From Kiloniellaceae bacterium (GTDB lineage: Bacteria > Pseudomonadota > Alphaproteobacteria > Kiloniellales > J153), in assembly GCA_021776115.1 (NCBI GenBank), contig JAJFGN010000049.1:62001-126000 (forward strand): DNA of 64,000 nucleotides, given 5' to 3'. Position 1 is the stretch's first letter. Every line of letters starts with the position of its first letter. The notes under the pieces were generated by a model. It searched no databases. It was not told the origin of the DNA and worked only from the letters and a program-made list of their open reading frames with translations. Positions 55,223-56,797 of this stretch are shown piece after piece. Both the position numbers and the translations under genes were made by a program.

Positions 55223-56797
55223 TTAACGCAGAAAAGATGGATAGGCCCGATCGCCGCAATCGTGCCAAGCGCATTGGCGGCAATGGAGCCCAACAGGCGT
55301 AAACGAGCTATCGTCTTGGAGCCCAAGTCCGTCGGCATAAACCAGAGCATCGGCATACGAAACGTCGCAGCCGATGGATACCGAATAGTGCCGTTCCAGT
55401 GTCCCATGGCCCAAGCTTGGCCCCCTTTGAGCACGAGCCAGAAATATATAGGCGGTCCCGTCGGGAAGACGGGCCAATTGGGTGTCGATTCGACCCGGAT
55501 TCATAAAGGCGCGATGCACGTTCCATCGGGGGCACGCCCCACCGAACCGGGGAATGCGCAAGCCGGACGCCGCCCGCCGCTGGATAATGTTGCCGGCGAG
55601 ATCAACGCGCAAGAAATGGAACGGAACCCCTTCGGCGCCGGGCTGCTGCAGCGTGGTCAGACGTTGACAAACCTGCTCGAAACCGACACCGAAGCGCCGT
55701 TGCAAGACATCTAAATCGTGGCGCAGGTCGCGGGCGGCTTCTAGGAATTCACGGTATGGCATCAGGATGGCGGCGGCCAGGTATTCGCTCTGGGCCTGGC
55801 GCAGCAGGGCTATGGCGGCCGGCACTTCAAGCCCTGCCGGCGCGGCCATACGGTCGAGGAGCGGTCCGGCGGCGGCAAGCGCGAGCTGGCGCGCCATCTC
55901 GAGAGACCGGCTGGACGGGGGCAGAATCTCGCTCAGGCGCAAGCAACGGGCTTCCTCGTCGAAGTGGGCCAGACGGGCGTGGCTCCCAGCCTCTCCCGCT
56001 TTCCAAGGTGAAATCTCGACCGAGATCCCATGGTTCTCACTCAGGTGCGCGATTAGAGCCGAATCGAGGCGCGGGTCCGGGATACCAAGCGCCCGCCGGA
56101 TATCTTGGGCCGCGTCTTCCAGCTCCGCGGAATAATTTCCGCTCGCTTCTAAGTAATCGGCGACCAGCGACGAAGGCGTGTCCAACTTCCGTTGCTTGCT
56201 AAGACCCTCGCCCGAAATAAAGCCGAAAAGCTCATTGACGAGATCGGTCAGCTTCTCGCTCTCCGATACGACCGTGCCGATGTATTGCTGACGGCGGTCG
56301 GCGGCCAGATCGGCGTTGTCCCTCAAGATCTCCGAAAACGACCGGACCGAGGTCAAAAGGGTGAGCAAGCGATGGCTGGTCGTCTCCAAAAACGGATTGT
56401 CGGCGAGGTGTTCGCTTAGATTGGCGGCCTCCTCCCGGGCATCCCGATACGCGCGGTAAAGCGCCATTACCGACCCGGCGACATCTGGCGCGGCGCCGAC
56501 CAAACGGGTCAGGTCCTCCTGGCCCACCGGATCGCCCTTGAAAACGGGATCGCCGAAAACCTCGGTCAGATCGGACAGGAGGCGGCCTTCCTCACCGCCG
56601 GACAACGCGTGTGGGTCGATTTGCAGGACCTCACCCAAATTCAGCAGTATCGGCCGCGTCAGGGCCCGCTGGTTATGTTCTATGAGGTTCAAATAGCTCG
56701 GAGATATCCCCAGGCGCGCTGCCAGACCGACCTGCGTGAGCGCGGCGCGCTTGCGCAAGCGTCGAATCTTGCTGCCGATCAACAGGCGGTGTTTCAT
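55223..56797 (-). CDS. XRE-family ScfR/RamB-like (DUF2083) regulator with an internal HisKA/DHp-like segment
   Basis: HTH: IGSKIRRLRKRAALTQVGLAARLGISPSYLNLIEHNQRALT; DHp-like: TSHRLLTLLTSVRSFSEILRDNADLAADRRQQYIGTVVSESEKLTDLVNELFGF; C-terminal LHCRQCAWHDCGDRAYP Cys motif. Confidence 0.9.
   Translation of the reverse strand: MKHRLLIGSKIRRLRKRAALTQVGLAARLGISPSYLNLIEHNQRALTRPILLNLGEVLQIDPHALSGGEEGRLLSDLTEVFGDPVFKGDPVGQEDLTRLVGAAPDVAGSVMALYRAYRDAREEAANLSEHLADNPFLETTSHRLLTLLTSVRSFSEILRDNADLAADRRQQYIGTVVSESEKLTDLVNELFGFISGEGLSKQRKLDTPSSLVADYLEASGNYSAELEDAAQDIRRALGIPDPRLDSALIAHLSENHGISVEISPWKAGEAGSHARLAHFDEEARCLRLSEILPPSSRSLEMARQLALAAAGPLLDRMAAPAGLEVPAAIALLRQAQSEYLAAAILMPYREFLEAARDLRHDLDVLQRRFGVGFEQVCQRLTTLQQPGAEGVPFHFLRVDLAGNIIQRRAASGLRIPRFGGACPRWNVHRAFMNPGRIDTQLARLPDGTAYIFLARAQRGPSLGHGTLERHYSVSIGCDVSYADALVYADGLGLQDDSSFTPVGLHCRQCAWHDCGDRAYPSFLR

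What the first reader, a model, noticed from the sequence alone, without database searches (positions are those of the whole stretch)
55223..56797. XRE/ScfR-like transcription factor with an embedded HisKA (DHp)-like hairpin
The protein starts with an XRE helix-turn-helix and ends with the ScfR/RamB-type Cys motif (LHCRQCAWHDCGDRAYP). Residues ~138-195 (about 56210-56386) read LETTSHRLLTLLTSVRSFSEILRDNADLAADRRQQYIGTVVSESEKLTDLVNELFGF. This aligns almost residue for residue with the HisKA domain of the kinase encoded nearby (VSHELRTPLTSIRSFSEILTDNPALDTTERERFLTIIVKETERLTRLINEILDL). The His is kept, but the E-L-R-T-P signature is degraded (SHRLLTLLTS) and there is no ATPase domain. A one-component regulator appears to have acquired a DHp hairpin from a kinase. 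It could act as a docking site or phosphoacceptor for a receiver domain.
Basis: partly seen in the sequence, partly recalled or inferred. Interest (0 to 1): 0.88.

Follow-up and report, generated by a model that had tools for sequence, protein, structure and literature searches.

The report
Gene switch with borrowed kinase docking piece
A DNA-binding protein that senses fatty-acid metabolites carries, spliced into its middle, the two-helix piece by which a neighbouring membrane sensor kinase talks to its messenger protein, so the messenger probably plugs straight into the gene switch; the arrangement is conserved across many alphaproteobacteria, and I found no description of it.

Summary
On the minus strand (56797..55223) lies a 524-aa XRE/ScfR-family regulator with a true HisKA/DHp hairpin inserted at residues ~135-194 (Pfam HisKA 34.3 bits, above cut-off; AlphaFold hairpin matches HK853-type DHp domains). 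It has no ATPase domain. The insert is a discrete ~60-residue module: DHp-less ScfRs lack it, and DHp-carrying ScfRs form one clade (98%). Among 30 HisKA loci of this genome, its best match is the DHp of the linked SLC5-type kinase (46.9 bits; next 19.4). In 395 alphaproteobacterial genomes, all 45 with a DHp-ScfR also have that kinase, even where unlinked. The co-encoded receiver has no output domain but keeps every catalytic residue (45/45).

Within the DHp, receiver-contact positions match the kinase best. The Pro after the H-box is always lost and the Glu usually. The His itself is replaced by Tyr, Phe or Gln in 14 of 171 distinct segments. I therefore favour docking of the phosphorylated single-domain receiver onto the transcription factor, DivL-like, over histidine phosphorylation. 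The mechanism is inferred, not shown. Parts and logic are known; this combination appears undescribed.

The parts
55223..56797 (-). DHp-ScfR: XRE HTH - DHp - M78/IrrE-like - ScfRs C-terminal (Cys motif) regulator, 524 aa
56612..56767 (-). XRE helix-turn-helix (residues 11-62)
   Evidence: Pfam HTH_3 E=1.2e-8
56216..56395 (-). inserted DHp (HisKA) hairpin, residues 135-194; alpha1 135-160, alpha2 166-194
   Evidence: Pfam HisKA 34.3 bits; AF2 model; Foldseek of the segment to HK853 DHp; absent from DHp-less ScfRs
56372..56374 (-). codon of His142, equivalent of the phospho-accepting His; H in 157 of 171 distinct relatives, Y/F/Q in 14
55655..56035 (-). M78/IrrE-like part of the acyl-CoA sensor
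   Evidence: PrpR structural match
55232..55654 (-). ScfRs C-terminal domain with the Cys motif
   Evidence: Pfam PF09856 175 bits
54744..55124 (-). single-domain receiver, the probable ligand of the DHp; D10, D53, T83, K105 present
   Evidence: Pfam Response_reg; conservation over 45 orthologues
51723..54494 (-). SLC5/SSS-type sensor histidine kinase (923 aa), CrbS-like
   Evidence: HisKA + HATPase_c; conserved with the regulator
52248..52451 (-). DHp of that kinase, nearest relative of the regulator's DHp in this genome
50187..51656 (-). CBS-DUF294 protein, next gene, conserved in close relatives
57074..59035 (+). divergent sodium:solute symporter (likely short-chain acid permease), probable target gene
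   Evidence: conserved divergent neighbour in L002, L003, L004, L007, L008, L018, L020, L023
56849..56862 (-). tandem TGTAAA-N2-TGTAAA, candidate ScfR operator; the only exact match in the 4.3-Mb genome

Best explanation
The gene encodes a ScfR-type acyl-CoA-sensing transcription factor with a second input. A DHp hairpin, related to that of the linked SLC5-type histidine kinase, was inserted once between its DNA-binding half and its ligand-binding half. Shown here: the domain, its single origin, its kinship to that kinase, its tie to the kinase and to an output-less receiver, and loss of kinase features. Inferred: the membrane kinase senses an extracellular substrate (probably acetate or another short-chain acid) and phosphorylates the single-domain receiver; the phospho-receiver docks on the DHp of the regulator as it does on the kinase, and shifts the DNA-binding dimer. 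The regulator would thus combine outside substrate (receiver) with inside acyl-CoA (ScfR domain) to control itself and the divergent symporter gene. The DHp would act as a receptor for the receiver, as in DivL-DivK, rather than as a catalyst.
For: HisKA above cut-off in the window protein, no HATPase. Clean insertion: 89-97 aa in DHp+ versus 20-40 aa in DHp- proteins. One clade on the ScfR tree built without the insert (98) and one clade on the DHp tree (95/94). The linked kinase is the best genomic match, 46.9 vs 19.4 bits. 26 of 29 DHp+ GTDB loci carry the receiver and most the kinase; of 52 DHp- ScfRs only two have either in the locus, one of them a second ScfR beside a DHp+ gene. 45 of 45 genomes with DHp-ScfR have the kinase, 7 of them on another contig. 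Receivers have no output domain yet keep D10/D53/T83/K105 (T or S at 83) in 45 of 45. Seven receiver-contact positions (HK853 rewiring set plus DivL T557/Y562) are 71% identical between regulator and own kinase versus 37% elsewhere (random sets as good: 0.3%), and 6/7 in the window. Pro at H+5 lost in all 171, Glu at H+1 in most; H->Y/F/Q in 14, with the kinase still present wherever the genome was checked; E156-I157-L158 near invariant. The DHp model matches HK853, including structures in complex with RR468. DivL precedent: Tyr for His, DHp binds DivK~P without phosphotransfer (PMC4211667).
Against: No binding, phosphotransfer or complex model was obtained. His142 is kept in 92% of distinct sequences, more than a pure dock would need. 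Kinase-only genomes also have the output-less receiver, so the receiver has other duties and the regulator is not its only output. No regulator-kinase covariation was seen: matched 0.417 versus mismatched 0.403 identity. A single origin means linkage counts are not independent events. The contact positions lie mostly in alpha1, which is more conserved anyway.
Confidence: 0.6

Rival explanations
1. The DHp is a real phosphoacceptor: the receiver (Spo0B-like back transfer) or the kinase in trans phosphorylates His142, and the phospho-His regulator is the active form.
For: His kept in 157 of 171 distinct segments and Thr at H+4 in 148; receiver fully catalytic.
Against: Y, F or Q replace His in 14 segments of several lineages with kinase present; Pro at H+5 always and Glu at H+1 mostly lost; DivL shows that a DHp can bind a phospho-receiver without being phosphorylated.
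Confidence: 0.2
2. The DHp only dimerises the transcription factor; the resemblance to the kinase is ancestry without a current signalling role.
For: DHp hairpins form four-helix bundles (general knowledge); the insert sits in the helical linker between DNA-binding and sensor halves.
Against: 45/45 co-occurrence with the kinase including unlinked cases; receiver-contact positions conserved above the rest; DHp-less ScfRs such as RamB function without it (PMC10370305).
Confidence: 0.1
3. The DHp forms mixed bundles with the kinase DHp, tethering the regulator to the membrane kinase until substrate arrives.
For: Close kinship of the two DHp domains.
Against: No evidence beyond sequence; would not need receiver-contact residues.
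Confidence: 0.05
4. The regulator's DHp is a phosphatase or sink that drains the phospho-receiver.
For: Thr at H+4, the residue used by HisKA phosphatases (general knowledge), is kept in 148 of 171.
Against: No ATPase domain; DivL binds DivK~P without dephosphorylating it.
Confidence: 0.05

Closest known systems
ScfR regulators (RamB, PccR, PrpR/MccR)
   Same: HTH, M78/IrrE-like and ScfRs domains with Cys motif; PrpR structures match residues 208-521; shares a tandem TGTAAA upstream element with DHp-less ScfRs
   Different: contains a ~60-residue DHp insert, and is tied to a two-component system
DivL-DivK of Caulobacter (PMC4211667)
   Same: a DHp stripped of kinase function as a probable receptor of a single-domain receiver; natural replacement of the His
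   Different: DivL is a PAS-DHp-CA pseudokinase; here the DHp sits inside a DNA-binding acyl-CoA regulator, and the His is mostly kept
CrbS/CrbR and RpuS/RpuR SLC5-kinase systems (PMC9100948)
   Same: the kinase: SLC5 transporter fused to a histidine kinase, here also next to a solute symporter gene
   Different: CrbR-type regulators carry their own DNA-binding domain (general knowledge); here the receiver has none and the DNA-binding protein carries a DHp
Spo0B/ChpT-type phosphotransferases
   Same: DHp-type fold without active kinase
   Different: they pass phosphate to a further receiver; here the DHp is fused to the DNA-binding output

Membership tests
ScfR transcription factors | XRE HTH + M78/IrrE-like + ScfRs C-terminal domain | tested here: met
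   77 of 77 homologues
ScfR transcription factors | binds short-chain acyl-CoA | not testable with these tools
   known for RamB of Paracoccus (PMC10370305); needs assay
HisKA/DHp domain | helical hairpin with profile score above cut-off | tested here: met
HisKA/DHp domain | conserved His | tested here: met
   H142 in the window; 157 of 171 relatives
HisKA/DHp domain | H-box Glu at H+1 and Pro at H+5 | tested here: not met
   R143 and L147; no Pro among the residues listed for 171 relatives
Histidine kinase | HATPase (CA) domain | tested here: not met
   no HATPase_c match at E<=1
DivL-type pseudokinase | Tyr in place of His, PAS-DHp-CA layout | tested here: not met
   window protein keeps His and lacks PAS and CA; Y occurs in some relatives
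DivL-type pseudokinase | binds a phosphorylated single-domain receiver through the DHp | not testable with these tools
   suggested by co-encoded receiver and contact residues
CrbS/CrbR system | SLC5-fused histidine kinase | tested here: met
   HisKA + HATPase_c; N-terminal part read as SSS/SLC5 by its sequence and by a cross-match to the symporter in a relative (L168); Pfam SSF did not score on it, so the SLC5 label rests on sequence reading
CrbS/CrbR system | response regulator with its own HTH | tested here: not met
   0-15 residues after the receiver domain in 45 orthologues
CrbS/CrbR system | STAC domain in the kinase | not tested
   no Pfam match in that stretch

The most novel reading that the evidence does not exclude
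A two-component system whose DNA-binding output is a separate one-component metabolite sensor carrying a copy of the kinase's own DHp, so that receiver phosphorylation and intracellular acyl-CoA are integrated in one transcription factor; in its strongest form the factor itself becomes phosphorylated on histidine.
Probability: 0.2. Interest if true: 0.88.

Novelty: new variant of a known kind. Interest (0 to 1): 0.75.

Why it matters
Many single-domain receivers have no known output. Here is a conserved candidate output, with a docking domain copied from the kinase family and fused into a metabolic transcription factor. It suggests that a one-component regulator can be wired into a two-component pathway by gaining a DHp, and it is testable with three soluble protein parts. 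Most of these proteins match HisKA and at least one UniRef name is 'histidine kinase' (P0119), which misleads kinase counts.

Tried and rejected
Prediction that genomes with the kinase but no DHp-ScfR would have a CrbR-like receiver-HTH protein: not met, their receivers are also single-domain. Covariation of kinase and regulator DHp: no signal, because the kinase interface is nearly invariant. Tandem TGTAAA element as a mark of the DHp subfamily: rejected, DHp-less ScfRs have it as well (22/29 versus 35/50). Divergent C-terminus in some relatives (L180) suspected to be a new domain: it is a shortened protein that still scores for ScfRs. Profile search with the DHp segment alone gave only short ScfR fragments. 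Text searches found no paper on this architecture; Carter and Alber 2015 was not held.

Full report
What is there. The 524-aa gene lies on the minus strand, 56797..55223. Pfam finds HTH_3 (11-62), HisKA (136-190, 34.3 bits, cut-off 26.9), M78/IrrE-like (255-381) and ScfRs (382-522), and no ATPase. M. tuberculosis PrpR covers residues 68-125 and 208-521 of this protein, leaving just the DHp stretch without a counterpart. The full AlphaFold model (mean pLDDT 86.5) gives two long helices, 135-160 and 166-194; its Foldseek matches are PrpR and IrrE. The DHp segment modelled alone (mean pLDDT 77.6) matches HK853 DHp structures, including those in complex with RR468, at 1.4-2.7 A (E-values are modest, 0.01-0.2, as expected for a hairpin). 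Next genes on the same strand: single-domain receiver (54744-55124), SLC5-type histidine kinase (51723-54494), CBS-DUF294 (50187-51656). Divergent: a sodium:solute symporter (57074-59035). The SLC5 label of the kinase rests on reading its N-terminal membrane half and on its analogy to CrbS; Pfam itself scored only HisKA and HATPase_c in it.

Is the insert a real module? Yes. In 83 ScfR-like open frames from GTDB and own loci the stretch between residues 122 and 212 is either 89-97 aa with a DHp or 20-40 aa without. A tree of the rest of the protein puts all DHp carriers on one side of a branch (98), so the gain looks single. A tree of the hairpins alone also keeps them together (95/94) and near the SLC5 kinases, although 58 columns resolve little and the kinase group itself is not resolved. 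Within the window's genome the linked kinase scores 46.9 bits against the regulator's DHp; the next of the other 28 HisKA loci searched scores 19.4.

Is it tied to the kinase? Of 29 DHp+ loci of GTDB genomes, 26 have the receiver in the fetched stretch and most the kinase; the three misses lie on short or truncated stretches. Among 52 DHp- ScfRs, one is a second ScfR in a DHp+ locus and one has an unrelated receiver about 10 kb away. In 395 alphaproteobacterial genomes, 45 hold a full-length (one of them contig-truncated) DHp-ScfR, and the same profile finds the SLC5 kinase in all 45; in seven the two lie on different contigs, so this is not only operon hitch-hiking. Nine genomes have the kinase without the regulator. 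These counts read the listed matches; weaker ones were not listed. In the order, 42 of 46 hold both at a stricter threshold, and two of the four others (G028, G163) show the kinase just below it. In a 399-genome sample of the phylum, full-length DHp-ScfRs occur only within the class, although kinases of this type occur outside it.

What could the DHp still do? Over 171 distinct segments: His 157, Tyr 8, Phe 4, Gln 2; Thr at H+4 148; no Pro at H+5 among the residues listed; Glu at H+1 in 48; E156 168, I157 171. The paired kinases read keep HELRTP where the motif was found. The receivers keep all phosphorylation residues (D10, D53, T/S83, K105) and end right after the domain. Positions named in HK853 interface rewiring (4jau/4jav, titles) and in DivL-DivK binding tests (T557, Y562; PMC4211667) are T149, S150, S153, F154, I157, V176, E179 here: 6 of 7 equal to the own kinase, versus 45% of other positions; over 31 pairs 71% versus 37%; random sets of seven reach this in 0.3%. 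Caution: alpha1 is more conserved overall. So the surface that meets a receiver is kept while the catalytic chemistry decays, and the His is expendable in several lineages. That is the pattern of DivL, whose DHp binds the phosphorylated single-domain receiver DivK without phosphotransfer.

Proposed working. Substrate outside -> SLC5 kinase -> receiver~P -> binds regulator DHp -> altered DNA binding, modulated by acyl-CoA in the ScfR part -> control of scfR itself and the divergent symporter. Support for the last step: a tandem TGTAAA-N2-TGTAAA lies about 52 bp upstream of the regulator's start and is the only exact match in the 4.3-Mb genome; the same element (up to one mismatch) precedes 22 of 29 DHp+ and 35 of 50 DHp- ScfR genes against 1 of each in a reversed control. 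It therefore looks like a family operator and implies autoregulation; binding itself is untested. The symporter link is by position. The acetate role is by analogy with CrbS/R (PMC9100948).

Limits. No complex could be modelled, no covariation was detectable, and one origin means that counts are not independent. The output-less receiver also occurs without the regulator; in at least six of those nine loci a gene encoding, in the case read, an N-terminal sensor-like region, a hairpin with the His missing, and a DnaQ-like exonuclease lies beside the receiver, hinting at a further partner.

Known or new. Databases already hold the domain combination (Pfam lists), and one earlier study saw a ScfR gene beside a two-component system in Paracoccus without pursuing it (PMC10370305). 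My searches found no account of the DHp or its role. I rate it a new variant of a known kind.

Noticed in passing
L145:1395-3665 (and L184-L187): Genomes with the SLC5 kinase and receiver but no DHp-ScfR often carry beside the receiver a protein with a sensor-like N-terminus, a DHp-like hairpin lacking the His ('ATEGMRAPLANLRAAIE') and a DnaQ-like exonuclease domain; possibly another receptor of the same receiver.
   Followed up: partly
window 56849-56862; upstream of many ScfR genes: Tandem TGTAAA-N2/3-TGTAAA in front of ScfR genes with and without DHp; the window site is the only exact match in the genome.
   Followed up: partly
L160:5594-7690: A DHp-ScfR with its own second receiver gene directly downstream while the kinase and a first receiver sit elsewhere in the genome.
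   Followed up: no
L123, L125, L128, L130; L139, L141: DHp-ScfRs with Phe or Gln in place of the His, in one family each; natural tests of the docking idea.
   Followed up: partly
G787, G788: Two DHp-ScfR paralogues in one genome.
   Followed up: no
G000:C44:110822-111466, about window 48822-49466, -: DnaQ-like exonuclease region next to the CBS-DUF294 gene in the window's own genome.
   Followed up: no
P0119: A UniRef entry of this family is named 'histidine kinase' although this architecture has no ATPase domain: likely misannotation.
   Followed up: no
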